Below the pieces are notes generated by a model. It had not been told where the DNA came from and did no database searches. It was given only the letters and a program-made list of their open reading frames with translations. The position numbers and the translations under genes are program-made. Below, in pieces: positions 1 to 34,360 of a DNA stretch of 44,479 nucleotides. Numbering within the stretch: the stretch's first letter is position 1; every line of letters begins with the position of its first letter. Origin of the DNA: Bacteroidia bacterium (GTDB lineage: Bacteria; Bacteroidota; Bacteroidia; Flavobacteriales_D; JAUILH01); assembly GCA_030433115.1 (NCBI GenBank), contig JAUILH010000016.1:1-44479 (forward strand). Reading direction: 5' to 3'.

Positions 1-2
1 AT

Positions 3-3000
3 TCAAAAACAACATCTGAAGAGTGTAAATATGACATTGTTTTACCTGCATTTACTTTTTTACCTCAGTCTCCAGATAGTACGGATGTGGTGATCGTTCC
101 ACCACTATGCAGAGATTCGACAAATGGTCAAATTCAGATCACAGATGTTTGGGAAGGTGGTGTAAGTGATCAAAACTCTCAATACACCTATACACTTAGA
201 GATCAGGACACCATTCAGGTATGGAATATTCCAGCGACTTCTTCCTCAGATTACCCTGTGACTTTTTCAGGATTGGCACCAGGAGACTACTTCTTGTCCA
301 TTGAAAATGTACATTTCTGCACCACCGCTGAGGTTCAATATACAGTTCCCAACCCAGCACAATTCACTAGTTCATTCTCAGGAATCATTAACAACAATTG
401 TTTTGGAGATAATCAAGGTAGTGTTCAGCTGTCTTCTACCAATGGGACTCCACCATATGCATATACACTTTACGATTCAGGAGGATCTGTTTATGGGCTC
501 ATTAATTCAACAAATTCTTCAGTCACCATGTCTTTGTTACCCGCAGACACATACTCTGCCACAGTTGATGATGCCAATAATTGTCCTGCCATACCAGATA
601 GCTTGTCCAACATTGTAATCACTGAACCAACTAAACTTCAAGGCTTTGTGCTTAGTATCTCTGATGTGTCTTGTTTTAATGAAAGTAATGGTGGTTTTGA
701 TCTGTTTGCTACAGGTGGAACCGGGGCACTAGAGTATAGCTCAAATGCTGGAGCGAGCTGGCAACCATCTAACAGCTTTACTGGTTTAACTGCGGGAGTC
801 TACAACATCAGCATTCGAGATGCGAATCTTTGCCAATGGGACAGTACAGTAACAGTGATGGAACCAAGTACAGCAGTGGCAATTGACGTTGTTAGTACAA
901 GCCATGCCGGTTGTTTTGGAGAAGCTTCTGGGGAACTTGTTTTAGATGGAATTGGAGGAAGCCCCATGACCGGAGGGAGCTACAGATTCTACTTAGATGG
1001 ATTCCAAGGCGATCCTGACATGGATAAAACAGGTGTTCCATCGGTGACTTTGACCAATATCCCTGCAGGAACCTATGATGTTTATGTTGAAGACGACAGC
1101 GCTTGTACAAGTCAACAGTCTGTAACTATCAATCAACCTGCTCAACTGGATTTGACAATGCTCAACCAGATACCGCCTTCCTGCCCAGGTGCCAGTGATG
1201 GAAGTATTCAAGTTCAAGCTATTGGAGGCACTCCCCCTTATGAATTTTCAACTGATGGTGTTGTTTGGGAGACCGACTCAATATTGACATTCACGGCAAC
1301 CAGTTTAGCTCAAGGGAGTCACACATTTTACATTCGAGATGCCAATTTTAGTGGAAACACGTCATATTGTTATAATATTCAGTCCTACTCACTCAACGAT
1401 CCCCCCTCTTTGGCTGCGAGCATGGTTGTTACAGATGTAGACTGTTTTGGCAACTCCACTGGAAGCATAGTTTCGAATATTACCGGAGGAACAGGTTCAG
1501 TATCAAATTACACCTTCGAATGGAGAATTAACGGGCAATCTACTGTAATAGACAGCAATGAGGATTTGATATCCTATCCGGCAGGAGATTACGAACTCAC
1601 TGTATTTGATGAGAATGCTTGTTCCATGACTTTCCCCTTTGAAACCATATCAGAACCAACAGAACTCATTTTTACAAGTATTTTCACAACTACAGCAACT
1701 TGTTCTGGACATAATGATGGAGATATCACGATGGCGGGATCAGGAGGTACTGGTGCTTTAGAATTTTCAATAGACGCCACTAATTTTTTCCCGACCAGTA
1801 CATTTCTTTCACTGCTTCCCGGCAATTATACTTGCACCATTCAAGATGCAAACGGTTGTTTGATAGATAGTACAGTACTAGTAGACTCTGTAGTCGTAGA
1901 GCAATATTATACAATAGATTCTATAGATTGTGCCGGAGGAACAGGAACAATCACCGTAAACAGTCTTTATGGATCATTACCATACTCGTACCATTACTTT
2001 AATGGTTCGTGGAACACGCAAGGATTAAATATCATTTCAGGATTAAGCACCGGAAACTATCAATTGGTAACGGTTGACAATAACAATTGTCCATCTGATA
2101 CTGCCACAGTAGTACTCACGGAGCCAAGTATATTAAGCGGAATTACAAGTCTGGATGCTCAAGACCAATGCGCTTTGAATATTGGAATGGCCTCAATTAG
2201 CTCTTCAGGTGGAACACCTCCTTACTCTGAGAATTGGTTCGATAGCAATCTTCAAACGATTAATCCCTTGTCTCTAGAAACGGGTTGGGCTTATGTTGAA
2301 GTTACTGACTCAAAAGGTTGTACCTATCTTGATTCAGTGAACGTCACTAGCTTACCAAATCCAAGTTTGGCGATTAATGTAGTGGATACCTCACATTGTT
2401 CTATGTCTGACGGCTCACTGTGGGTTGATGTAATTGCTAATGGAAATGCGCCCTATTCCTATTTGTGGGATGATGTGAGTGCTCAGACGAATGATACAGC
2501 AGTTTCTCTTACCGCCGGAACTTACTCTGTTACAGTGACCGATAATATCGGATGTGTCGTCTCCGAGAGCTACTCTTTAGTTGATGGCACCCCAGTAAGT
2601 ACGTCCATGGTTCATTTTATCAATTCTACTTGTGGAAATGCAGATGGAGAACTCGGCGTATCAATTTCTGGAGGTGTTGCGCCCTATTCTGTTCAATGGA
2701 ACGATCCAGGGATGCAAACCACGGATACGGCTTTTGCCATTGCTTCCGGACTCTATACAATAACCGTCACCGATGATGTAGGTTGCTCATACCCATTTGT
2801 ATACAGCATGACTGACTTAAGCGCTCCTACGATTGATAGTGTTGTTCTGTATAAGTCGTATTGCAATCTTCCAACTGGTGCAGCCAAAGTCTATGCCACT
2901 GGTGGCACCCAACCATACGATTTCGAATGGCAAGACAATTTGGGCACAAACCTTGGCGTTTTGGTCGATACAATTTCCGGTTTGGCAGCAAATAATTATT

Positions 3001-4781
3001 TCGTTCAAGTGACAGATCAGGGAGGATGTATAGTCTCGGCGCCATTTGCAATAGAAGATGATACCTTACTAACCCCAACACTATCATTTGTCTCTCTTGA
3101 TAGTTCCGCTTGTGGAAAACCAATTGGTGAAATCACAGTTCAAATGACAGGTGGTGATATGCCATATTCTTTTCTTTGGTCATCAAGCATTAATGATACC
3201 TTACCCACAGTAGACAGCCTATTTGCAGGCACATACAATGTTATAGCAGAAGACAATAAAGGCTGCCAGGAGACTATGTCGTTTAGCATTGTTGATAAGG
3301 TGACGCCTAGCTTAAACCTGGTAAATATTACACCAGCCGACTGTGGGGTTAATAATGGTGCTTCAACAGTGAGTGTTAATAATGGAAAAGCACCATATAC
3401 ATTTGTTTGGAACGATCCGGCACTTCAAACAACCGCCACTGCCAACTCTCTGAATGCCGGTACCTATCAAGTATACGCTATTGATGCCGATAGCTGCTAT
3501 TCGGATACACTCACTATCGTGGTCAACACCAATAACCCCATCATAATCACACAAACTGATTTCGTTTCACCAAGTTGTCATGATTCTAACGATGGTGAAG
3601 TAGAAATAAGTATTTCTGGTGGTGTTAGTCCATACTTCTCTAATTGGTCGACGGGAGAAACAGATACAATGCGTGTATACAATCTTCCAGCTGGCTTGCA
3701 TTACGTGATAGTGAATGATGGATTTGGATGTGAAGATTCTTTATCTTTCGTGGTAACAGCTCCTAATCAACTAATGGTCAATAATATCTTATTGACCGAA
3801 CCAAGTTGTGCGGGGAATTGTGATGGACAAATTCAGATCAGTACAAGTGGAGGAAGTGCTCCAGTTAATACAAGCTGGGACAATGGAACCCCAGGCTTAT
3901 TGAATACGGCACTTTGTACAGGAAATCATCAGGTGACTCTGACAGACAACAATGGCTGCACCTCTGATTCTACCCTATTTTTAGGAGAACCAGCTCCCAT
4001 CACCAGTATTGGTGTACCCGATAGCAATACGATTTGTGTAGGCCAGATCTTTGAGATAGACTTATCAGCTCAATATAACAGTTCCACCTGGGGAGGAGAC
4101 AATGGTTACAGCGCTACTGGGGAAATAGTTGCATTAGATCAAGCAGGGCAATATTGGGTAAATACCTTTACCAACGCGGGGTGTGAGGTCAATGACACGT
4201 TCAACATTGCAACTTCCAACGATCTTTTACAAGCTAATTTTGTAGTCCCCTCTGCCACAATTATAAGTGATACAGTTGTTGCGGTTGATGTTACCTGGCC
4301 ATTACCAGAAACTAACCAATGGATATATATAGACTCTGTCACAGACATCATAGATTCCTCCATGTCAGATAGAATTGAATTCTCATTTAATCAGGTTGGC
4401 ACATTTCCAATTACACTTTACACTACGCTAGCTCAATGTTCGGATAGTATTACAAAGCACATTGAAGTTTATGCTGACTCGGCACAATTTAATCAAGGGC
4501 AACGACCAGTAGACAACATTGATAAAATATTAGAAGTTCTGCTCTACCCCAACCCAAATAATGGAATATTTACAGTGACCGTTGAGCTGGATACAATAGA
4601 AACGGTTGTTCTCAGTGTTCATGACATTCTCAATGGGTCAACTTATGACACACAAACTCAATCAGGGCAGGATGATTATACGTTCAGCTTCAACTTATTA
4701 AATCTTAATCCAGGCGTATATATCGTGAGGCTTTACGCATTCGGAGAATATAGGATGTTCAAATTTATCATAACGAATTAG
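3..4781 (+). CDS. SprB-repeat giant surface adhesin with T9SS type A sorting domain (5' partial)
   Basis: The frame is open from base 3, so the true start lies upstream; 1592 residues are visible. From about base 100 to 4010 there are some 16 diverged repeats of 75-90 residues, each opening with a Cys and a small acidic/Gly stretch (for example CPGASDGSI) followed by GGTPPY and an aromatic turn: the SprB repeat. Two beta-sandwich-like segments follow (about 4020-4500). The last ~75 residues form a type A sorting domain (LYPNPNNGIF, then LNPGVYIVRLYAFGEYRMFKFIITN split at its middle: LNPGVYIVRL and FKFIITN). Proteins of this kind cross the outer membrane by T9SS and act as adhesins, for example in gliding. 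Its TAG stop shares one base with the next GTG start, so the genes are probably co-translated. Exact function unknown. Confidence 0.9.
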   Translation, partial: SKTTSEECKYDIVLPAFTFLPQSPDSTDVVIVPPLCRDSTNGQIQITDVWEGGVSDQNSQYTYTLRDQDTIQVWNIPATSSSDYPVTFSGLAPGDYFLSIENVHFCTTAEVQYTVPNPAQFTSSFSGIINNNCFGDNQGSVQLSSTNGTPPYAYTLYDSGGSVYGLINSTNSSVTMSLLPADTYSATVDDANNCPAIPDSLSNIVITEPTKLQGFVLSISDVSCFNESNGGFDLFATGGTGALEYSSNAGASWQPSNSFTGLTAGVYNISIRDANLCQWDSTVTVMEPSTAVAIDVVSTSHAGCFGEASGELVLDGIGGSPMTGGSYRFYLDGFQGDPDMDKTGVPSVTLTNIPAGTYDVYVEDDSACTSQQSVTINQPAQLDLTMLNQIPPSCPGASDGSIQVQAIGGTPPYEFSTDGVVWETDSILTFTATSLAQGSHTFYIRDANFSGNTSYCYNIQSYSLNDPPSLAASMVVTDVDCFGNSTGSIVSNITGGTGSVSNYTFEWRINGQSTVIDSNEDLISYPAGDYELTVFDENACSMTFPFETISEPTELIFTSIFTTTATCSGHNDGDITMAGSGGTGALEFSIDATNFFPTSTFLSLLPGNYTCTIQDANGCLIDSTVLVDSVVVEQYYTIDSIDCAGGTGTITVNSLYGSLPYSYHYFNGSWNTQGLNIISGLSTGNYQLVTVDNNNCPSDTATVVLTEPSILSGITSLDAQDQCALNIGMASISSSGGTPPYSENWFDSNLQTINPLSLETGWAYVEVTDSKGCTYLDSVNVTSLPNPSLAINVVDTSHCSMSDGSLWVDVIANGNAPYSYLWDDVSAQTNDTAVSLTAGTYSVTVTDNIGCVVSESYSLVDGTPVSTSMVHFINSTCGNADGELGVSISGGVAPYSVQWNDPGMQTTDTAFAIASGLYTITVTDDVGCSYPFVYSMTDLSAPTIDSVVLYKSYCNLPTGAAKVYATGGTQPYDFEWQDNLGTNLGVLVDTISGLAANNYFVQVTDQGGCIVSAPFAIEDDTLLTPTLSFVSLDSSACGKPIGEITVQMTGGDMPYSFLWSSSINDTLPTVDSLFAGTYNVIAEDNKGCQETMSFSIVDKVTPSLNLVNITPADCGVNNGASTVSVNNGKAPYTFVWNDPALQTTATANSLNAGTYQVYAIDADSCYSDTLTIVVNTNNPIIITQTDFVSPSCHDSNDGEVEISISGGVSPYFSNWSTGETDTMRVYNLPAGLHYVIVNDGFGCEDSLSFVVTAPNQLMVNNILLTEPSCAGNCDGQIQISTSGGSAPVNTSWDNGTPGLLNTALCTGNHQVTLTDNNGCTSDSTLFLGEPAPITSIGVPDSNTICVGQIFEIDLSAQYNSSTWGGDNGYSATGEIVALDQAGQYWVNTFTNAGCEVNDTFNIATSNDLLQANFVVPSATIISDTVVAVDVTWPLPETNQWIYIDSVTDIIDSSMSDRIEFSFNQVGTFPITLYTTLAQCSDSITKHIEVYADSAQFNQGQRPVDNIDKILEVLLYPNPNNGIFTVTVELDTIETVVLSVHDILNGSTYDTQTQSGQDDYTFSFNLLNLNPGVYIVRLYAFGEYRMFKFIITN

Positions 4782-6985
4782 TGAGAAAACTCCTGATCAT
4801 ATTGATTCTTTTGTGTGCCCCGGTTAAAGCCTGGCTGCAAACCTATCCGGTTACATCCAACGTGATATTAATCCCTCCGTATTCATTAAGATTAAGTGAT
4901 TATGCAGATCCGTCAAGTAATAATCTAATGATTAATTTGACATTGAATGATTTATCGGTTCCGGCATATGATGTCAGGATGAAGATTTATATTAAAAGTT
5001 CCTCTGTAATTATCAGCACTAAAGATAATTGGCTTCCCCCTCCCATTACTTTGCAAGGCGGATTTACGAATCAATTATCCGGAGCTGATTTAATGCAGTA
5101 TTTAGATCCTGCCAATTTAGAGTTTCAGGGGATCACTCAAACTCAATTTCAGCAAACCGGACTTTTACCGGAAGGTGTTTATCAATTTAGTGTGGAAGTT
5201 TATGACTACAATGTAAATACCCTAGTGTCTAATTCGGGAAATACCGCAGCATGGCTCATACTCAACGACCCTCCATTACTCAATTTACCTCTTAATCAAG
5301 ACAAACCCACCGCCACGGATCCTCAGAACTTAGTTTTTCAATGGACTCCGAGACATACTGGTTCTCCGAATTCGGCTTTCAGTACAGAGCATGAGTTCGA
5401 ACTTTTTGAAATATGGCCTTCAGGGGCTGATCCCAATAATGCAGCACTGTCTTCTCCTCCAATTTACACTGCCATAACTAGTGCAAACACTCTAGTATAT
5501 GGTCCTGCAGAACCCCCTTTAGTTCCTGGACGAGAATACGCCTGGCGTGTTCAAGCAAGAGATGTGCTAAACAGAGATTTATTCAAAAACAACGGCTATT
5601 CAGAGGTATTCATGTTCAAGTTTGGCGATGAGTGTATATTGCCCACCAATATTTCTGCTCAAGCCATCAATGCTGAGAGGGTTAAAATTACCTGGACACC
5701 AGAGTTTGTGCACACAGGTTTTCAGATTGACTATAGACTACAAAGTCCGGGAGCAAGTTGGGCAACCACCACCAGTCTTACAAATTATGTTAACATCAAT
5801 AACTTGAGTCCCGGAGAGATCTATGAGTTTCGCGTGATGGGACAATGTGGAACGGTCTTAGGATCGGGGTCACCAATTGATACAGTAAGTACACCATCTG
5901 TCTCCCCTACTGCCTTTGCATGTCAACCATTAAATCCTAACCTTGACCTCATCAACCAAAACCTCATTCAGCAATTAAATCCGGGAGACGTCATTCATGC
6001 TGCTGACTTTGATGTTGAGATCATTTCTTCGAGCGATACAACTGGAGGCGCATTCAATGGTTTTGGTCGCATGGCCATTCCCATGCTAGACAACATCAAC
6101 TTATATGCGCAGCTGGTTAATGCCAAAATAAACACCGATTTGGTTCTAATCGATGGAAAAGTAGAATTACTAGGAGTTGAAAACCCAATTCCTGAGGATA
6201 TTAGAGATGATATTAATGATATGTTGGACGATATTGAGGATGGGTTGGATGATATAGGAGATCATCTTGACAATATTGATAACCTTGGTAGCTTAATTGT
6301 TGATCAATATTTGAAGAGTCCTTACATACCAGATACCCTAAAAGATAATATTCGGGATGCCCTGGACAATTTAATTGATGCCATAGAAAATGGTGATCAG
6401 GGACTTATAGACGCGGCTGTAGAGCAACTACAGGAACTAATAGACCAAGCCCAGGAAATACTGGACAATCTTGCCACTTTTCTGTCTGATTTAAAGGCCA
6501 TTGTTACTCAAAGCATTAATGATATGAGAGGTGATTCTGAATATGAAAAAGACTCTCTTGAAATGTCGGCTGACTCGCTCTCCATAATTTTACAGGACTC
6601 TTTGTACAATTTTAACGAACAGGAATTGATTCAATCTACTACATATGATAATGTTAATGTGCTGCACTATCAAAACGATGATATCATATCACACGACATT
6701 GATGACCCTAATTTGCCACCACCTGTCTTGTTTATTATGGATAAGTACAAGAAAATTATGGACCTCAAAAGAAGATATAGGTTTTTGACTTTCTTAGTAG
6801 AAAATGCAGACATGTTCCTAACACCAGGTTATCTGGACAATCTTGTTGCAGAGATAAAACAGGACATAGAAACTGTAGCAGTGCACCTCATTAATATGAT
6901 TGCAGAGGGAACAGACACTGAAGATGTCATCACATACGTGAAACAATATTTACTATCTAAAATAGAGGACAGTTATGTTGAATAA
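4781..6985 (+). CDS. Secreted fibronectin type III domain protein (possibly TANFOR-like)
   Basis: 734 residues from a GTG start at the TAGTG junction with the adhesin gene; the resulting N-terminus is a clear signal peptide (basic MRK, then a Leu/Ile core). Residues ~22-170 form a beta-rich region (motif PPYSLRLSDYA) that I associate with TANFOR-type proteins found near SprB-like genes; this name is from memory and unverified. Residues ~285-372 are a fibronectin type III domain (VKITWTP, GEIYEFRVMGQCG). Residues ~400-460 are beta-rich, and ~465 onward is an Asp-rich predicted helical or coiled-coil region (IRDDINDMLDDIEDGLDDI) to the end. No sorting domain is visible. The gene overlaps the next ATG by 11 bases. 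It may be an accessory or linker for the neighbouring surface proteins; that role is inferred from context. Confidence 0.75.
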   Translation: MRKLLIILILLCAPVKAWLQTYPVTSNVILIPPYSLRLSDYADPSSNNLMINLTLNDLSVPAYDVRMKIYIKSSSVIISTKDNWLPPPITLQGGFTNQLSGADLMQYLDPANLEFQGITQTQFQQTGLLPEGVYQFSVEVYDYNVNTLVSNSGNTAAWLILNDPPLLNLPLNQDKPTATDPQNLVFQWTPRHTGSPNSAFSTEHEFELFEIWPSGADPNNAALSSPPIYTAITSANTLVYGPAEPPLVPGREYAWRVQARDVLNRDLFKNNGYSEVFMFKFGDECILPTNISAQAINAERVKITWTPEFVHTGFQIDYRLQSPGASWATTTSLTNYVNINNLSPGEIYEFRVMGQCGTVLGSGSPIDTVSTPSVSPTAFACQPLNPNLDLINQNLIQQLNPGDVIHAADFDVEIISSSDTTGGAFNGFGRMAIPMLDNINLYAQLVNAKINTDLVLIDGKVELLGVENPIPEDIRDDINDMLDDIEDGLDDIGDHLDNIDNLGSLIVDQYLKSPYIPDTLKDNIRDALDNLIDAIENGDQGLIDAAVEQLQELIDQAQEILDNLATFLSDLKAIVTQSINDMRGDSEYEKDSLEMSADSLSIILQDSLYNFNEQELIQSTTYDNVNVLHYQNDDIISHDIDDPNLPPPVLFIMDKYKKIMDLKRRYRFLTFLVENADMFLTPGYLDNLVAEIKQDIETVAVHLINMIAEGTDTEDVITYVKQYLLSKIEDSYVE

Positions 6986-9900
6986 ATATTTGAATTATAT
7001 CATTCTTCTTATCCTCCTTGGTTTTGCAAATTCAACTTTCGGGATAAATGACGACATAGAAAGAAAAGCACAACTAATAGTCGAACAAATTCTAAAGAAT
7101 AGGACGTCAAAGAATCAAATTCGAGTTATAGACATTAGTCAATTGAATCCTGATGACAGAGTTATTCCGAGAGGTCGACCAATTATTGACGATCATGTTT
7201 ATTTGAATAATCTTGAAAATCAATTAATTCAACACAACGTTCAGAATGATGATGCAGCCATCATTTATGTTCTCCTCAACGGATATAAAATCAACGAACT
7301 GAAACCAATTTCGATCAACAGTGATTCACCAAACTCTGAACTTACCGTTGATGAAATTGATCAAACATACATTAATGAGAGAATTAAAGAAGAGGAAGAA
7401 GCATATACAGAAGAGCTATTCTCTGCGGTTCAGGCTGGTTTGGGGAACCTTGAGAGTTTTCTGGATTTTGATGACCCTGCTCTTGATGAAGCTCGCAGAT
7501 TGTGCATTATTAACATTAAGGCTTACTATAGCTTGGTTAAAGCAGAAAATGGAGGTCAATACCAAGTCGGGGAACAATATGTTAAGTCCGTGGCATTTGG
7601 AGACTATTTCAATCCACAAATAAAAACGTTTAAAGATAAAATCATTGAGGCAGGAGCCGCTGCAAATTTTCATATTCCAGGGCAAGCGGATAATAAAAAA
7701 ATAGCACTTAATAAATACGTGGAAGCTGCTAAGCAACTGCGGGGTAATGATTTTGTTGAAGGGATATGGCAGGATACCGAGCAAGATAGACTAGATGAAA
7801 ATAAGTGGAATCAGGAAGTCTCAGAATTGGCTTTGGCCATTAATGATTTATACAGTGGTGCCCATGCTGGGCATTATTGGAGTGACATTGATGGTATTAC
7901 ATCATTTTATTCACACCCCGAAATCTATGACTGGGCGTGGGCAAACAATGGAGTAAAGCTTAAAACATGGCTATTCGATCGACTCAGTAAACTCAAGACT
8001 GCTTCAGACGTTCGTATCATAACAGTGCATAAAGAACTGCCTTTTTATGTACCAAGTTCCCTGAATGTACAAAACAATCTTAGCACATTGATTACTGAGG
8101 CTATTGAGGCTTCATTAGCAGAATTAAATGACAACCTTATAATATTATTCAATTTCAGAGTAGTTACACCAAACAATCCATCTTTAACTATTGCGTATAC
8201 CTATGTATCGTCAGGACCTCAAGTCCATCCTTATAAAGACCTTATAAAAGGTGTAAAATACGATAATGAGTTAAGCGGACTTTACGACATTTTCATCGCT
8301 CTACCAAAATATTACAGAGAATTTAGATTCCTCATTAGACCTGACGGTCAAATCCTGGAATCCGTAATCGAAAACAAAGCTTATCCTGGTGAAGAACTTT
8401 TTAAAACGTGCAAGCTCTATGTTCATAAAGAGATACCACATAATGAAGGTTGGGGTGGTATGAATTGTATTGAATTTGCGTGTGAAGAATTAAGCAGACC
8501 CGATAATACAATTATTGCTCCGAAACATTGGGACCAAATGTATGAAAGACATCCTTTACAGGCAACGATTATGCAAATGCAAAGGGAGGGTATGTACAAT
8601 ACAACTGATTTACCTGATGGCGTCATTGACCAGACCTGTAGTTATCTTAAAGGGAAATTTGAGGAGTGTTTATACAGAGCCTCAAATAACGAAAATTCCG
8701 AGTACGCGATTTTTGAACCAGAGCAGGTTAAACATGAAAAAATCCTCCTTTTAGGGGATGCCAGGTTTTATGTAAAATACACCTTAAATAAATACCTCCG
8801 GAACTTCTATAATTACCACAAATTGAATAAATGGCACGAATCCATAGACCCTACTTCTCCTGCGGTAGGAATGTTGGTAGTGCAAAATATCCCACAAGAA
8901 ATAAAGGACCTGGACCTTCTTATTCTTGATGGTATTTCATTGTTAGCATCAGCAGTTGAAGCAGATTTCTTCGTCGAATTTATTGCCATGTCATGGAGCG
9001 CTGCTACCGGACGCTATGAACAATCAGCAGAATATGCCATGTGGATGGCGATACCTGGGGGAACTATCTTGTTATCCAAAATGTTTATAAGAGGTTATAA
9101 GCACGGGGTTAAGTTTGTCAGAAAATTTAAATATGGGGGAACTGTGCCTTCATCTGTATGGGATAAGACAGAAATTGCTTTGAAATCAGATTTAGACGCA
9201 TTTTTTTCAAGTAAAAACCTACTCAATCAAGGAAAAGTATATAACAAAAATGTTTCATCTGGTTTAAACGGTGCTCAAGAAATAGCAGAGTACAATTCAA
9301 CGCTTGGTTCTTTGACCATAAAAGAAGAAAAATTCATTACCAACACTGATCTAATTGATAAAAACGTTCCGGAAATCACAATTCACAAAAGTGATAATTT
9401 GCCAATTGTTATTTCCAAACTAGATGGCGCAGCAGAGGTAATGAAGATTGCTGTAGGTCTGGTAAAAAAGACAGATGGGACATGGGGACTAGTTAGAAAG
9501 TCCGAATTTGCCGGAACTTATTTGGGAGAGAAAGTAGAAGTCTTAAAATCGATTCTTACAGGAAGCAAAATTAATTACAGTCACTTATCAGACCAAACTC
9601 TAAAAACACTAGGCGACCTTCATTATTCAGATAATATTTTTGGTTCTCAAAATACTTCTAAAATTAGTCAAATATCTAGAGAGGCTAAAATTGGAAATCA
9701 AACCGTTACTAAGCAAGAAGCTTTTCTCCACGACCTAGCCAATAACAGCTCGTTTAGAAGTAAAATGTTGGATAATGGTGGGCAGATTAAACCAACTGAA
9801 TTAGATGCATGGACCGCAGTAGCATTTTATAGTGAAACCCACAGAGTTAACATAAATCTTATAGATGATCTTGTCAGTGTGCTAGATAAACCTGGAGACT

Positions 9901-10511
9901 TAGTGACAAAATCCAAGCTTCAAAACGTACTTTTTCACGCATATACCATTGGTCCAAAGGTTTCTGTGGATATACTAGAAATTGGAGATGCTCTGAAGAA
10001 ATTAAGTGCCATGCATGATGCACAAATTCCAGGTGCCAAATCTGTAATCTCTTCTTTGTGTCATCCAAAAAAGTCATTTTCACAAGGTGCATTTGGGCAA
10101 ATTCGATTCGCTAAATCAAAAAATTGGCAGGGTATCTCGGCCTTTGAAAGCTCAGTGGACATATCCGGCACAACCAGGCGATATGATGTTATTTGGCAAG
10201 GGAAACAAATTGAGCTTAAAAACTATAGTGTTAAGGTAGATGAGGTAAGTTTTACAAATCAAATCTCTAGAGATTCTAAAGAAATAAATTTAGATATTGA
10301 TATACCTAATGACATTGGAAATAAACGTTGGTATTTTTTAAATAATGATTTATATCCTAATGGGGATATTGACTTTCGGGCAAGTTTGCAAAATGCTTTT
10401 ACTGGCAATGGAAAATACGCGGGTAAAGTTGATATTGATAAAATAGAAGATGCAGGTTTTGATGATCTTGAAGATTTTCTTAACTCAAATTTTTTCAACT
10501 TAATAGATTGA
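6975..10511 (+). CDS. Candidate secreted polymorphic toxin with C-terminal REase-fold nuclease domain
   Basis: 1178 residues. The ATG inside the end of the upstream gene gives a good signal peptide (~1-23). Residues 24-640 match no family I recognise. Residues 645-696 form a hydrophobic segment (LLILDGISLLASAVEADFF, later YEQSAEYAMWMAIPGG) resembling the 'pre-toxin' stretch ahead of toxin tips in polymorphic toxins. The C-terminus carries a PD-(D/E)XK-like signature: RRYD with D1071, a beta-turn, then IELK with E1080 and K1082, and a possible helical Glu at E1058. That predicts a restriction-endonuclease-like DNase. There is no T9SS sorting domain at the C-terminus. Four bases downstream begins a cytoplasmic propeller gene, a good immunity candidate. 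Toxin function and secretion route are inferred. An adhesion-only role cannot be excluded. Confidence 0.7.
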   Translation: MLNKYLNYIILLILLGFANSTFGINDDIERKAQLIVEQILKNRTSKNQIRVIDISQLNPDDRVIPRGRPIIDDHVYLNNLENQLIQHNVQNDDAAIIYVLLNGYKINELKPISINSDSPNSELTVDEIDQTYINERIKEEEEAYTEELFSAVQAGLGNLESFLDFDDPALDEARRLCIINIKAYYSLVKAENGGQYQVGEQYVKSVAFGDYFNPQIKTFKDKIIEAGAAANFHIPGQADNKKIALNKYVEAAKQLRGNDFVEGIWQDTEQDRLDENKWNQEVSELALAINDLYSGAHAGHYWSDIDGITSFYSHPEIYDWAWANNGVKLKTWLFDRLSKLKTASDVRIITVHKELPFYVPSSLNVQNNLSTLITEAIEASLAELNDNLIILFNFRVVTPNNPSLTIAYTYVSSGPQVHPYKDLIKGVKYDNELSGLYDIFIALPKYYREFRFLIRPDGQILESVIENKAYPGEELFKTCKLYVHKEIPHNEGWGGMNCIEFACEELSRPDNTIIAPKHWDQMYERHPLQATIMQMQREGMYNTTDLPDGVIDQTCSYLKGKFEECLYRASNNENSEYAIFEPEQVKHEKILLLGDARFYVKYTLNKYLRNFYNYHKLNKWHESIDPTSPAVGMLVVQNIPQEIKDLDLLILDGISLLASAVEADFFVEFIAMSWSAATGRYEQSAEYAMWMAIPGGTILLSKMFIRGYKHGVKFVRKFKYGGTVPSSVWDKTEIALKSDLDAFFSSKNLLNQGKVYNKNVSSGLNGAQEIAEYNSTLGSLTIKEEKFITNTDLIDKNVPEITIHKSDNLPIVISKLDGAAEVMKIAVGLVKKTDGTWGLVRKSEFAGTYLGEKVEVLKSILTGSKINYSHLSDQTLKTLGDLHYSDNIFGSQNTSKISQISREAKIGNQTVTKQEAFLHDLANNSSFRSKMLDNGGQIKPTELDAWTAVAFYSETHRVNINLIDDLVSVLDKPGDLVTKSKLQNVLFHAYTIGPKVSVDILEIGDALKKLSAMHDAQIPGAKSVISSLCHPKKSFSQGAFGQIRFAKSKNWQGISAFESSVDISGTTRRYDVIWQGKQIELKNYSVKVDEVSFTNQISRDSKEINLDIDIPNDIGNKRWYFLNNDLYPNGDIDFRASLQNAFTGNGKYAGKVDIDKIEDAGFDDLEDFLNSNFFNLID

Positions 10512-10515
10512 GCAA

Positions 10516-11604
10516 ATGAAACTAATAAGTACACATGATAAGTTTGATAGCTACTACGGTCCCTTCATATCGTTGAGAAATGATATTCTTTGCAAGGTTA
10601 AGTCGGGTCAGTCAACTAAATTAGTATCTCTTATAAATGAAAATATCGTCTATGATCAAGATAATTTTCATGGGTTGATTTCCAATACTAATGGCAATGA
10701 TGCTTTGGTTCTATTAAGAAACAGAAAAATTGCTGATATCGAAACGTTACATTTTCTTGAATCTGAACAAAAAATTGCGCCATCGGCAAAAATATGTGGA
10801 AATGAAGTTTACTCTTCAATAAAACAAGATGGAAAAAAAAGTGTGTTCTCTATGAACCGTAGTACAGGCAAAATCAATTGGATTGAGCCTATAGAAGAAT
10901 CTAAGGCGATCGGATTTGTCACAGATGATAATAATTTGTACGCATCTAACATGAAGGCTAGTGTACTCTGTCTTGATAAAAAAACCGGAAAGCACAAATG
11001 GACCTTTAATGGTGATTCTAAATATAAAATTTCTCCTCCACTTGAAGCTGATGCTGAATTGCATCCTCATGATAAAATTATCGTCACTGATTGTTGTTTG
11101 ATTGTATATTATAAAAATTCACACATAGTCGCAATTGATAAACATTCAGGTCAATTGAAATGGGAAATAGATATGTTTCTACAAGATATTTCCGTACTCG
11201 AAATTGTGAATGATGAACTTATCGCTTTTGGAGTAAAATCTTCCATTTTTCAAGTTGAAGGAATGGCTCTGTTAAGACCTCAGGACAAAGAAGTGTTCAT
11301 ATATAAAATAAACCTTGAAACAGGGGCATTGAAAAGCACAACTTTAGTTAATGATGATGCCATAATGGCTAGAGTAATTAATGATCATGAGTTTTTTGAG
11401 AAAGGTGGAATAATAGATTCCAGGATGATCATTGGCTGTAGTAGATCAAATGCAGTTTTTGAGATTGATTTGTCGTCTGCAAAAGTATTAGATTCTTATG
11501 AACATGAAGTGAATCTAAACGGTATGATGGGAATTTTTCAGAATAAAATAATTGTGAGAGACATCAATATGAATTTGTTAATTCTGGAACGTGAGAACGC
11601 TTAA
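10516..11604 (+). CDS. PQQ-like beta-propeller protein without signal peptide; candidate immunity protein
   Basis: 362 residues starting 4 bases after the nuclease-tipped gene. At least four blades show the PQQ-like signature of a turn plus Trp or equivalent: NRSTGKINW, DKKTGKHKW, DKHSGQLKW and NLETGALKS. The N-terminus (MKLISTHDKFD) is polar, with no signal peptide or membrane helix, so the protein should stay in the cytoplasm. That is unusual here because all four neighbours are exported. I see no quinoprotein dehydrogenase features. Position directly after a toxin-like gene suggests it neutralises that toxin (inference). Sampled 60-base lines at 10621 and 11101 contain 15 G+C each, against 28-30 in sampled lines of the flanking genes. 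Its end overlaps the next gene by 14 bases. Confidence 0.7.
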   Translation: MKLISTHDKFDSYYGPFISLRNDILCKVKSGQSTKLVSLINENIVYDQDNFHGLISNTNGNDALVLLRNRKIADIETLHFLESEQKIAPSAKICGNEVYSSIKQDGKKSVFSMNRSTGKINWIEPIEESKAIGFVTDDNNLYASNMKASVLCLDKKTGKHKWTFNGDSKYKISPPLEADAELHPHDKIIVTDCCLIVYYKNSHIVAIDKHSGQLKWEIDMFLQDISVLEIVNDELIAFGVKSSIFQVEGMALLRPQDKEVFIYKINLETGALKSTTLVNDDAIMARVINDHEFFEKGGIIDSRMIIGCSRSNAVFEIDLSSAKVLDSYEHEVNLNGMMGIFQNKIIVRDINMNLLILERENA

Positions 11605-13294
11605 AAAATGTGTCATAGCAATAGGCTGTTTGTGGCTTTTTAGCTATAGGACTTCTGCCCAAACCATCTCCCTCGATCAGTTCGATAAAGAAAACAAATT
11701 CAAAGCAAGTGGAGGCGTCAACACCAGCCACATTTATTACAATAGCTTTGGAAGTGATAATAGAAGAAATCCGTATACCTACTTCCTTAATGGAAATTTT
11801 AATATGCGTGTGTTTGGTTTCGATCTTCCTTTTTCATTCAGTTACTCTAATCAGCAAGTATCCTACAGACAACCATTTAACAGACTTAAAATTTTGCCTA
11901 AATACAAATGGATACGTTTACATCTCGGAAATTCAAGCATGAATTGGTCTCCCCTCACCTTAAGTGGACACATGTTCAATGGATATGGTGTTGAACTGAC
12001 CCCTAAAAAGTTTCATCTAAGTGCCATGTACGGGACCATGCTTCAGGCAGTGGAAATCGACACATTAAATCCTAACAATACGCCCTCATACAAGCGCACA
12101 GGCTATGGGGTTAAATTTGGCACATCTTCCGAAAAAGGCAATAAGATTGAGTTCATCATGTTCCGTGCAAAAGATGATACCATGAGCATCAAAAAGGTGG
12201 AGAACTATGACCTGGATGCCCTTGAAAATGTTGTATTGAGTCTGAATACCTCCGCTAAGATCAAAGAAAAAATTGTACTGAATCTTGAGTTGGCGACCAG
12301 CGCAATTACACACGACCTAGAAATTCCCGAAAGTATAACTGGCGACAACAAGTTCAGAGCCATAGGATACAAATACACCAATGCGACCTCATTCTATAAT
12401 GCTGTTAAGGGAGACGCCACCTACAAACACGACAAGTTTAATTTGGGCATTGGCTACGAAAGAATTGCACCTGAATACAGAACTCTTGGCGCTTACTTTT
12501 TCAATAACAATTTAGAGAATATTACCCTAAATGGCGGGACAACTTTGTTTAAAAAGAAGGTCAGTGTAAATGGAAACGTAGGACTTCAAAGAGACAATTT
12601 AAATGACGCAGAACTCAGTTCTATGCTACGAGTCGTTGGGTCGTTGAATGCAGCATGGGCAATCTCCCCCACCCTTAACTTAGGAGCATCATACAGCAAT
12701 TTCTATACGTTTACAAGAATACAACCAGACATTGACGAGTTAAATCAATTCCTTCCCGGACAAACTTTCTCTGAACAAGATTACACGCAATTGTCTCAAA
12801 ATGCCAACACCAATTTAGCCTGGACCATTAGCAACACAGATAAAAAGCGAGAAAACCTTAATGTAAACTTGGCCTATCAGGTAGCCAGTAATCAGCAACA
12901 AGGGCAAACTCAAAATGCTGGAAGTGTGTTTTACAATCTCAACACCTCATATACACGTTCTTTTGTGCCACTTGGACTAGGTTTAACGGCAAGTTTAAAC
13001 GGTAATCATAATGACGCCGGTGTTGCAAAAACTACAACCATAAGTCCTACAATTGGGTTAACCAAAGCATTATTTAAAAAGAAATTAAATACGCAATTTG
13101 GCATTACCTACAATCAGGCGATTAATAATGGAGCTTCAGTGAAATCTGTATTTAACACCAGGTTGTCTTTACGCTATATCCTCAAAGAAAAACACAATTT
13201 CAGCTTGAATACCATATTCCTAAATTCCAGCAACCTGAATGCCCCAACATTTAATGAATTGACCTCTACATTTACCTACGGCTATTCTTTTTAA
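11591..13294 (+). CDS. Outer-membrane beta-barrel protein of the adhesin operon
   Basis: 567 residues from a GTG inside the last codons of the propeller gene. Signal peptide ~1-24 ends in TSAQ. The rest is a long series of alternating amphipathic strands rich in Tyr, Asn and Thr (for example FDLPFSFSYSNQQVSY, LGLGLTASLNGNHND) ending in an aromatic-terminated strand (FTYGYSF), which is typical of barrels inserted by BamA. No plug domain is seen, so a TonB-dependent receptor is unlikely. The operon context suggests a surface anchor or passage for the adhesin complex; this is inferred. It converges on the next gene, and the two stop codons share four bases (TTAA at 13291-13294). Confidence 0.7.
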   Translation: MRTLKKCVIAIGCLWLFSYRTSAQTISLDQFDKENKFKASGGVNTSHIYYNSFGSDNRRNPYTYFLNGNFNMRVFGFDLPFSFSYSNQQVSYRQPFNRLKILPKYKWIRLHLGNSSMNWSPLTLSGHMFNGYGVELTPKKFHLSAMYGTMLQAVEIDTLNPNNTPSYKRTGYGVKFGTSSEKGNKIEFIMFRAKDDTMSIKKVENYDLDALENVVLSLNTSAKIKEKIVLNLELATSAITHDLEIPESITGDNKFRAIGYKYTNATSFYNAVKGDATYKHDKFNLGIGYERIAPEYRTLGAYFFNNNLENITLNGGTTLFKKKVSVNGNVGLQRDNLNDAELSSMLRVVGSLNAAWAISPTLNLGASYSNFYTFTRIQPDIDELNQFLPGQTFSEQDYTQLSQNANTNLAWTISNTDKKRENLNVNLAYQVASNQQQGQTQNAGSVFYNLNTSYTRSFVPLGLGLTASLNGNHNDAGVAKTTTISPTIGLTKALFKKKLNTQFGITYNQAINNGASVKSVFNTRLSLRYILKEKHNFSLNTIFLNSSNLNAPTFNELTSTFTYGYSF

Positions 13295-32835: not shown

Positions 32836-34266
32836 CTATTGAATGATCAGTCTATCCTTTAACACACCATGTTCTGTGGTTAAGAGAATTGTATAAATGC
32901 CAGCAGGCAAGTCAGACACATCTACTAATTGTGGATTTGTATCCAAAGTATATTCTCGCACTAACTGTCCTGAACTGGCCATCAAACTGAGCATGGCTTT
33001 TTCTCCACTAAATTTTTCGAGTTGAATGGATATTTGTTCAGTTCCAGGATTAGGATAAATCATTAATTTACCCAGATTTGGATTCTCAATAGAGTTAGTA
33101 CAATGACTTCCACTAACCACCATAATTGTAGTAGAATCTTGTAACTCACAACCAGGATTATTACCAGGACTAGTAGCCACTAAAACATACGTACCTAGCG
33201 CCAATCCATTCGGATCAAATTGATTGCCAACTACACCATTCCCAGACCAACTGGCATAAGAAGGAGATAGATTGGGCAGATTTACCGGATTTGCATTAAA
33301 GCAAATGCTATCAGGATTAAAAGAATTGGCACTTAATGTTGGGAACCCACAACTATCGACATAAATGATAGACCCAAAGCCATTTATATAAGTTTCTCCA
33401 TTTGGCTTAGTGGTGATCTTATAAAAAGTCTCATTGGTAATGTTTAGAGGCTCATCGTGCCACGTCTCTCCTCCATCAAAAGATTTAATCACAGTGTTAC
33501 CTTGTCCTGCTGCATAAAGAATTGTTCCGGTAATGTACTCTATATCATACAAACGCTCGGTTGTTCCAGATGGTTTAGACTGCCAACTGGTTCCTCCGTC
33601 AATTGTCTTTAAGATGGTTCCATTGTCTCCTACTGCAATTCCTTCCATGGTATTGATGAATCTAACTCGCCACAAATAATCATTGCCTGTAGTGGTATGA
33701 ACAACGGTCCAGGAATTCCCCTGATCTGTGCTTTTGGTAATCAAATTGCCTCCACAACCATAGCCTATCATATTACTGGCAAAGTACACCGAGTTACCTG
33801 CATTCTGGTTTGCCGCATGCGTCCAGCTGGCTCCTCCATCAGTGGTCTTCCAGGTATTCACGGTTCCACTTACAAATGCCAGATTCGCGTCAAAAGCATG
33901 AACTGAAGAATAGCTTTCTGAAGGACCTGCATCTAAAATTTCAGTCGTCCAGGTAGCACCACCATCATTGGTAATCATAATAATGTTGTTACTCCCTGAA
34001 ACATAACCTTTGCTCTGATCTCCAAAGCTTACATCAGCCAATATTGGTGTTGAATTATGCGCTACCTCCAACCAATTAGTTCCTCCATTAGTCGTTCTAA
34101 AAACTCTGCCTTCAGTATCCGCTATGAAGCCGGTATCATTGTTTATAAATTCGAAACCTATGTACCAAAAGGCATTACTAGGGATGGAATGAGACAATTG
34201 TTGCCATTGCGACATGACATTCGTGGAAATAGCAAGTCCCACGAGAACGATAAGCAGTTTTTTCAT
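32836..34266 (-). CDS. T9SS cargo with YCF48-like propeller repeats
   Basis: 476 residues from the ATG at 34266, which gives a signal peptide (MKKLLIVLVGLAISTNVMS); a longer frame to 34338 does not fit. Residues ~20-310 hold repeated TNGGTNWLEV, TNDGGATWTT, TTDGGASWTH, STDQGNSWTV, IDGGTSWQS and FDGGETWHD motifs, one per blade: a BNR/YCF48-type propeller. Residues ~320-400 form an Ig-like module (ASWSGNGVVGNQFDPNG). The C-terminal ~70 residues are a type A sorting domain (MIYPNPGTEQISIQL, LPAGIYTILL). Expected at the cell surface. Partner unknown. Confidence 0.85.
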   Translation of the reverse strand: MKKLLIVLVGLAISTNVMSQWQQLSHSIPSNAFWYIGFEFINNDTGFIADTEGRVFRTTNGGTNWLEVAHNSTPILADVSFGDQSKGYVSGSNNIIMITNDGGATWTTEILDAGPSESYSSVHAFDANLAFVSGTVNTWKTTDGGASWTHAANQNAGNSVYFASNMIGYGCGGNLITKSTDQGNSWTVVHTTTGNDYLWRVRFINTMEGIAVGDNGTILKTIDGGTSWQSKPSGTTERLYDIEYITGTILYAAGQGNTVIKSFDGGETWHDEPLNITNETFYKITTKPNGETYINGFGSIIYVDSCGFPTLSANSFNPDSICFNANPVNLPNLSPSYASWSGNGVVGNQFDPNGLALGTYVLVATSPGNNPGCELQDSTTIMVVSGSHCTNSIENPNLGKLMIYPNPGTEQISIQLEKFSGEKAMLSLMASSGQLVREYTLDTNPQLVDVSDLPAGIYTILLTTEHGVLKDRLIIQ

Positions 34267-34337
34267 GATGATTGGTTTTGACAAATAAGAACGCTTAAAA
34301 TAAGCTTTTATTGCTTTATAGTTTCGATCTGAAAACA

Positions 34338-34360
34338 AGGTATTGATTAAATCAATACCT
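34338..34360. promoter_or_regulatory. Perfect 23-bp palindrome, possible operator
   Basis: Arms AGGTATTGATT and AATCAATACCT are exact reverse complements of 11 bases around a single central A. It sits 72 bases upstream of the T9SS propeller gene start at 34266. With a one-base centre it cannot form a stable hairpin loop, so a binding site for a dimeric regulator is more likely than a terminator. Regulator not identified. Confidence 0.5.

What the first reader, a model, noticed from the sequence alone, without database searches (positions are those of the whole stretch)
10141..10511. PD-(D/E)XK nuclease signature at the tip of the third operon gene
D1071 in RRYD, then E1080-L-K1082 on the following strand, with a candidate helical Glu at 1058, is the spacing of restriction-endonuclease-fold toxins. 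The RR-x-D / ExK arrangement is usual in bacterial toxin REase tips. The C-terminal position fits a toxin tip.
Basis: partly seen in the sequence, partly recalled or inferred. Interest (0 to 1): 0.72.

Follow-up and report, generated by a model that had tools for sequence, protein, structure and literature searches.

The report
Likely nuclease tip of bacterial toxin
The end of this secreted Bacteroidota protein carries the residues of a DNA-cutting enzyme and sits in a gene set built like known bacterium-against-bacterium toxin loci, with a likely antidote gene next door; it is probably a new example of a known kind of weapon, but no relative was found and its fold could not be confirmed.

Summary
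A bare D...ExK match is chance level; the strand context (D-h...h-E-h-K preceded by GxxxQ and followed by Q) is uncommon (1 of 167 background C-termini, 0.2% of shuffled tails). The helix residue is better placed at Q1042 (GAFGQ) than at E1058.

The locus is a TANFOR polymorphic-toxin locus of the kind described by Jana et al. 2020: SprB-repeat/T9SS-CTD protein, short TANFOR/Fn3 protein, separate toxin gene, cytosolic candidate immunity gene (PQQ-type beta-propeller, 4 bp away), outer-membrane-barrel-like gene. Sister loci keep near-identical TANFOR halves and swap C-termini, one of them to another D...ExK tip.

No relative of the tip was found in any collection searched, no Pfam, NCBIfam or PDB match exists, and both AlphaFold runs failed (pLDDT about 32). 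The PD-(D/E)XK fold is therefore probable but unproven. Best reading: an orphan REase-like tip at a TANFOR/T9SS locus; a new member of a known kind. Separately, the operon's last gene belongs to an unnamed family found at nearly every well-supported TANFOR locus.

The parts
3..4781 (+). g1: SprB-repeat surface protein with T9SS type A C-terminal sorting domain (5' end outside the contig)
   Evidence: Pfam SprB E 3.7e-68, Por_Secre_tail E 2.6e-06; TIGR04183; C-terminal ~450 aa homologous to the gene upstream of TANFOR in L034, L035, L039, L040
4781..6985 (+). g2: short TANFOR + fn3 protein (734 aa), the delivery half of a TANFOR toxin without a toxin tip
   Evidence: TIGR02542 28.4 bits, below the curated 67 (no genome of 396 passes that cut-off); fn3; 30-36% identity over about 450-600 aa to five TANFOR proteins
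6975..10511 (+). g3: 1178-aa secreted protein with the candidate toxin tip; hydrophobic N-terminal signal-like segment
   Evidence: ORF, residues, hydropathy; no relatives
10059..10508 (+). candidate PD-(D/E)XK domain, aa ~1029-1178: GAFGQ1042 (10086-10100), RRYD1071 (10176-10187), E1080LK1082NY (10212-10226), TNQISRD (10254-10274), KRWYF (10323-10337)
   Evidence: fold not confirmed
8898..9080 (+). hydrophobic segment of g3 (aa ~642-702) ending in AIPGG, resembling by eye the pre-toxin segments of polymorphic toxins
   Evidence: hydropathy; no sequence match to other TANFOR proteins, so inference only
10516..11604 (+). g4: 362-aa PQQ/BamB-type beta-propeller without signal peptide; candidate immunity protein
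   Evidence: PF13360 E 1e-08; BamB and PQQ propellers in the PDB, E down to 2.4e-07; starts 4 bp after g3
11591..13294 (+). g5: 567-aa secreted, probably outer-membrane beta-barrel protein of a family linked to TANFOR genes
   Evidence: homologues at 9 of 14 TANFOR stretches and all 7 copies in 5 genomes at TANFOR-family genes; no Pfam or NCBIfam model

Best explanation
g3 is the toxin component of a split TANFOR polymorphic-toxin locus. Shown: the residues, the tight operon, homology of g2 to the delivery half of TANFOR toxins, the T9SS substrate gene upstream and the signal-less propeller gene downstream. Inferred: g3 is exported by Sec and then across the outer membrane together with g1, g2 and g5 (T9SS-linked route); its last ~150 residues enter a competing bacterium, fold as a PD-(D/E)XK nuclease that holds Mg2+ through D1071, E1080 and K1082 (with Q1042 on the first helix) and cut DNA; the producer and its kin are protected because cytosolic g4 binds the tip.
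For: Motif in strand context, with GxxxQ before and Q after; C-terminal position 98 aa from the end, compared with 108 in the L034 TANFOR toxin and 117 in BaCT (PMC7073777). Operon g1-g5 with overlaps or 4 bp gaps. g2 homologous to N-terminal halves of TANFOR toxins, which keep 88-96% identical N-termini with unrelated C-termini. Jana et al. report toxins encoded just downstream of TANFOR genes and SprB/CTD genes beside them. A sister locus of the same layout carries another D...ExK tip.
Against: No profile, PDB-sequence or genome relative of the tip; AlphaFold gave no usable model; hhalign to the L034-type tip is not significant; the simple secondary-structure estimate does not call ELK a strand; a beta-propeller is not among the immunity families I found described.
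Confidence: 0.58

Rival explanations
1. g3 is the toxin of the locus and g4 its immunity protein, but the C-terminal domain has another fold or target (for example an RNase or an unclassified toxin domain), and the D...ExK match is fortuitous.
For: No REase profile or fold support; bare D...ExK is at chance level; other TANFOR tips in sister loci have different folds, e.g. an HNH-like tip in L040.
Against: Complete element order with GxxxQ and Q, 0.2% in shuffles.
Confidence: 0.28
2. g3 is not a toxin: it is a structural or adhesin-like secreted partner of g1 and g2, and g4 is an unrelated propeller protein.
For: Several TANFOR proteins of the sample have beta-rich, non-toxin-looking C-termini and are followed by Fn3 proteins (L032, L033, L036-L038, L041). 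g4 is a propeller, not a known Imm family.
Against: The order g1-TANFOR-[toxin/immunity genes]-g5 matches the loci with toxin cassettes (L034+L084, L035, L039, L040); g4 is signal-less and 4 bp from g3.
Confidence: 0.14

Closest known systems
TANFOR-class polymorphic toxins of Bacteroidetes (Jana, Salomon, Bosis 2020, PMC7073777)
   Same: TANFOR/Fn3 protein, SprB + T9SS-CTD gene upstream, toxin encoded in the gene after TANFOR (a layout the paper reports), candidate immunity gene next
   Different: The TANFOR gene here ends without a tip and the toxin has its own signal-like segment and a ~900-aa backbone without relatives; candidate immunity is a beta-propeller; TANFOR score is below the curated cut-off
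BaCT (Bacteroidetes C-terminal Toxin), PD-(D/E)xK DNase
   Same: ExK near the C-terminus (98 aa from the end here, 117 in BaCT of F. hydatis), TANFOR context, gene for a candidate immunity protein directly downstream
   Different: No BaCT sequence could be compared; membership untested
Tox-REase-7 and Tox-REase-8 (Zhang et al. 2012, PMC3482391)
   Same: GxxxE/Q - D - [EQ]xK order, with Q after ExK as in Tox-REase-7
   Different: No hit to PF15649 or any other Tox-REase model; GxxxQ together with ExK is a combination that neither published signature lists
L034 TANFOR toxin tip (G202; relative in L047)
   Same: D...ExCK tip in a locus of the same layout, with g5 homologue downstream in L084
   Different: No detectable sequence similarity to the g3 tip; tip fused to TANFOR in one chain

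Membership tests
PD-(D/E)XK (restriction-endonuclease-fold) superfamily | D and (D/E)xK on neighbouring core strands, with E/Q on the first helix | tested here: met
   Q1042, D1071, E1080-L-K1082 present with hydrophobic flanks; strand placement inferred from sequence only
PD-(D/E)XK (restriction-endonuclease-fold) superfamily | alpha-beta-beta-beta-alpha-beta core | tested here: inconclusive
   AlphaFold on single sequences: pLDDT 31.9 and 32.7
PD-(D/E)XK (restriction-endonuclease-fold) superfamily | profile similarity to a known member | tested here: inconclusive
   No Pfam, NCBIfam, PADLOC, PHROGs or PDB match; another D...ExK TANFOR tip (L034) also matches nothing, so silence is weak
PD-(D/E)XK (restriction-endonuclease-fold) superfamily | metal-dependent nuclease activity lost in D/E/K mutants | not testable with these tools
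   needs the bench
Tox-REase-7 (PF15649) | match to the family model; GxxxE, IxD, ExK, Q | tested here: not met
   no hmmscan hit up to E 10; GxxxQ and RYD in place of GxxxE and IxD
BaCT | match to the BaCT PSSM around the invariant (D/E)xK | not tested
   no BaCT sequence or model was at hand; the L034 tip may be one but this was not confirmed
TANFOR-class polymorphic toxin locus | TANFOR-domain protein | tested here: met
   TIGR02542 28.4 bits, sub-cut-off, but 224-267 bits to TANFOR proteins of other genomes
TANFOR-class polymorphic toxin locus | neighbouring SprB / T9SS-CTD gene | tested here: met
   g1
TANFOR-class polymorphic toxin locus | conserved N-terminus with exchangeable C-terminal toxins | tested here: met
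   shown among sister loci; for g3 itself no relative exists to compare
TANFOR-class polymorphic toxin locus | cognate immunity protein encoded next to the toxin | tested here: inconclusive
   g4 is placed and built as expected (no signal, 4 bp away) but is a propeller of no known Imm family

The most novel reading that the evidence does not exclude
The tip founds a new PD-(D/E)XK toxin clade (GxxxQ...RRYD...ELKNY...Q...WYF), carried on its own secreted chain beside a tip-less TANFOR protein, neutralised by a cytosolic beta-propeller immunity protein, and exported or anchored through a dedicated TANFOR-linked outer-membrane barrel (g5 family).
Probability: 0.25. Interest if true: 0.6.

Novelty: new member of a known kind. 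Interest (0 to 1): 0.36.

Why it matters
It would add an orphan nuclease tip, a beta-propeller immunity candidate and a clearly split TANFOR arrangement to a thinly studied class of Bacteroidota weapons whose export route is still a hypothesis. The TANFOR-linked barrel gene gives that export question a specific gene to delete.

Tried and rejected
Relatives of the tip or of the whole protein: 396 phylum, 199 order, 100 relative and 159 class genomes, genome contigs twice, viral contigs, plasmids and phages gave none; the weak hits (E 0.003-5) were checked by alignment and none keeps D and ExK in place at a C-terminus. BRISC hits in the PDB (E 0.08-0.4) cover the D...ELK segment but belong to an unrelated eukaryotic scaffold; taken as chance. 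TruB, FabA and UgpB profile hits (E about 0.1-0.2) rejected as chance. hhalign with L034/L047: probability 0.2%, not through the motif; one search used the wrong strand of L047 and is void for that comparison. AlphaFold on aa 1009-1178 and 1030-1127: no confidence, so no fold search was made. Search for Tox-REase-7 members to build a comparison profile: none over the cut-off. A small ORF in L039 (6032-6571 -) with the full motif looks like a SUKH-type protein and was rejected as a relative. The 105-aa REase-like fragment in L039 has no relatives in plasmids, phages or viral contigs.

Full report
Observation. The ORF 6975-10511 (+) encodes 1178 aa, and the named residues are present at the stated positions. 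The loose D...(D/E)xK pattern is at chance level in this protein: 12 seen, about 15 expected in shuffles. What is unusual is the context: hydrophobic residues flanking D and ExK, a GxxxQ whose Gln lies 29 residues before the Asp, and a Gln 14 residues after the Lys. That combination occurs in 0.2% of shuffled tails and in one of 167 background C-termini. The pattern was shaped after looking, so this is support, not proof.

Anatomy of the tip. From about residue 1029 the order is GAFGQ(1038-1042)IRFAKS - ISAFESSVDI - RRYD1071VIW - GKQIE1080LK1082NY - VSFTNQISRDSKEI - NKRWYF. By inference this is the order of a PD-(D/E)XK domain: helix with E/Q, strand with D, strand with ExK, helix with Q, strand. 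Zhang et al. 2012 list GxxxE-IxD-ExK-Q for Tox-REase-7 and GxxxQ-DD-QxK for Tox-REase-8 (PMC3482391). A Chou-Fasman estimate gives strands at RRYDVIWQ and KRWYFL but does not call ELK a strand; it is weak evidence either way. AlphaFold had no relatives to work with and gave pLDDT 31.9 and 32.7: the fold is untested, not refuted.

Relatives. None was found for the tip or the backbone at any sensitivity available. Pfam, NCBIfam, PADLOC, PHROGs and PDB sequences give only chance matches. As a yardstick, two other D...ExK sequences at sister TANFOR loci (the L034 toxin; a 105-aa fragment GDGKRYFDNVLEGTAREVKSG in L039 7666-7983 -) also match no REase model of Pfam, so silence of the libraries says little.

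Locus. Five genes are packed head to tail: g1/g2 overlap 1 bp, g2/g3 11 bp, g3/g4 are 4 bp apart, g4/g5 overlap 14 bp. g1 has SprB repeats and a T9SS type A sorting domain; g2 has a TANFOR domain (below the curated cut-off) and fn3; g4 is a signal-less PQQ/BamB-type propeller; g5 is a barrel-like secreted protein ending in Phe. Jana et al. 2020 define TANFOR proteins as polymorphic toxins, report SprB and CTD genes enriched around them, describe cases with the toxin in the gene just after TANFOR, and show one tip family (BaCT) to be an Mg2+-dependent PD-(D/E)xK DNase neutralised by the next gene's product (PMC7073777).

Test of the class. A TANFOR search of 396 Bacteroidota genomes found 13 positive genomes, all below the curated cut-off. 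g2 is 30-36% identical over about 450-600 aa to the N-terminal halves of five of these TANFOR proteins. These show the mark of polymorphic toxins: L034 and L035 share 88% identity over 478 aa and nothing of note in the last 250; the two proteins of L040 share 96% and nothing in the last 250. One L040 tip looks like HNH; the L034 tip has EVDVVF...ILECK, and a 45%-identical relative keeps D and ExCK... E-C-K. In the window the TANFOR chain stops at 734 aa without a tip, and g3 plus g4 occupy the place that toxin and immunity genes hold between TANFOR and g5 elsewhere (L034+L084, L035, L039, L040).

Mechanism. Shown: anatomy, residues, neighbours, homology of g1, g2 and g5 to TANFOR-locus genes. 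Inferred: Sec export followed by T9SS-linked passage of the outer membrane, entry of the C-terminal tip into a competitor, metal-dependent DNA cleavage by D1071/E1080/K1082, self-protection by g4. I put toxin-with-immunity at about 0.86 and PD-(D/E)XK nuclease at about 0.58.

A separate result. g5 has no family model, yet homologues occur at 9 of 14 TANFOR stretches examined (9 of the 10 with the better support, L032-L041), on either side of the TANFOR gene, and all seven copies in the five genomes searched whole lie at a TANFOR-family gene; in G392 all three copies end at or within the start of one. It is a candidate export or anchoring partner that domain-based enrichment could not have listed.

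Verdict. Observation confirmed, interpretation partly supported: a likely orphan REase-like tip of a split TANFOR toxin, a new member of a known kind.

Noticed in passing
window 11591-13294 (+); L032 7669-9372, L036 15452-17182, L082 2673-4388, L083 10408-12171, L084 8197-10653: g5, a secreted barrel-like family without a Pfam or NCBIfam model, is linked to TANFOR genes: 9 of 14 TANFOR stretches, and all 7 copies found in 5 whole genomes. Candidate outer-membrane partner for TANFOR protein export or anchoring.
   Followed up: partly
L034 7026-11960 (+), L035 8362-11403 (-), L040 7827-10898 and 12925-18105 (+): TANFOR proteins with 88-96% identical N-terminal 480 aa and unrelated C-terminal 250 aa, two of them in one genome: clear tip exchange.
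   Followed up: yes
L034 11058-11957 (+) and L047: A D...ExCK tip fused to TANFOR, with a 45%-identical relative keeping the motif, a broken copy in a third genome (L048/L049) and a 259-aa candidate immunity gene next to it; no Pfam model. Possibly BaCT, not confirmed.
   Followed up: partly
L039 7666-7983 (-) and 6453-6728 (-): Short orphan fragments downstream of a TANFOR gene that look like remnants of an REase-type tip (KRYFDNVLEGTAREVKSG) and an HNH-type tip, as in toxin-cassette arrays.
   Followed up: partly
window 8439-8530 (g3 aa ~489-519): GWGGMNCIEFACEEL followed by KHWDQMYERH: a Cys/His-rich stretch that might be an autoprocessing protease or a metal site; no match in Pfam or the PDB.
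   Followed up: no
window 32836-34338 (-): A second T9SS type A sorting-domain protein (PSII_BNR/sortilin-like propeller) in the same window, consistent with an active T9SS in this genome.
   Followed up: no
window 1-90: g1 runs off the start of the contig, so the operon's first gene and promoter are not seen; the genome is a draft of 264 contigs.
   Followed up: no
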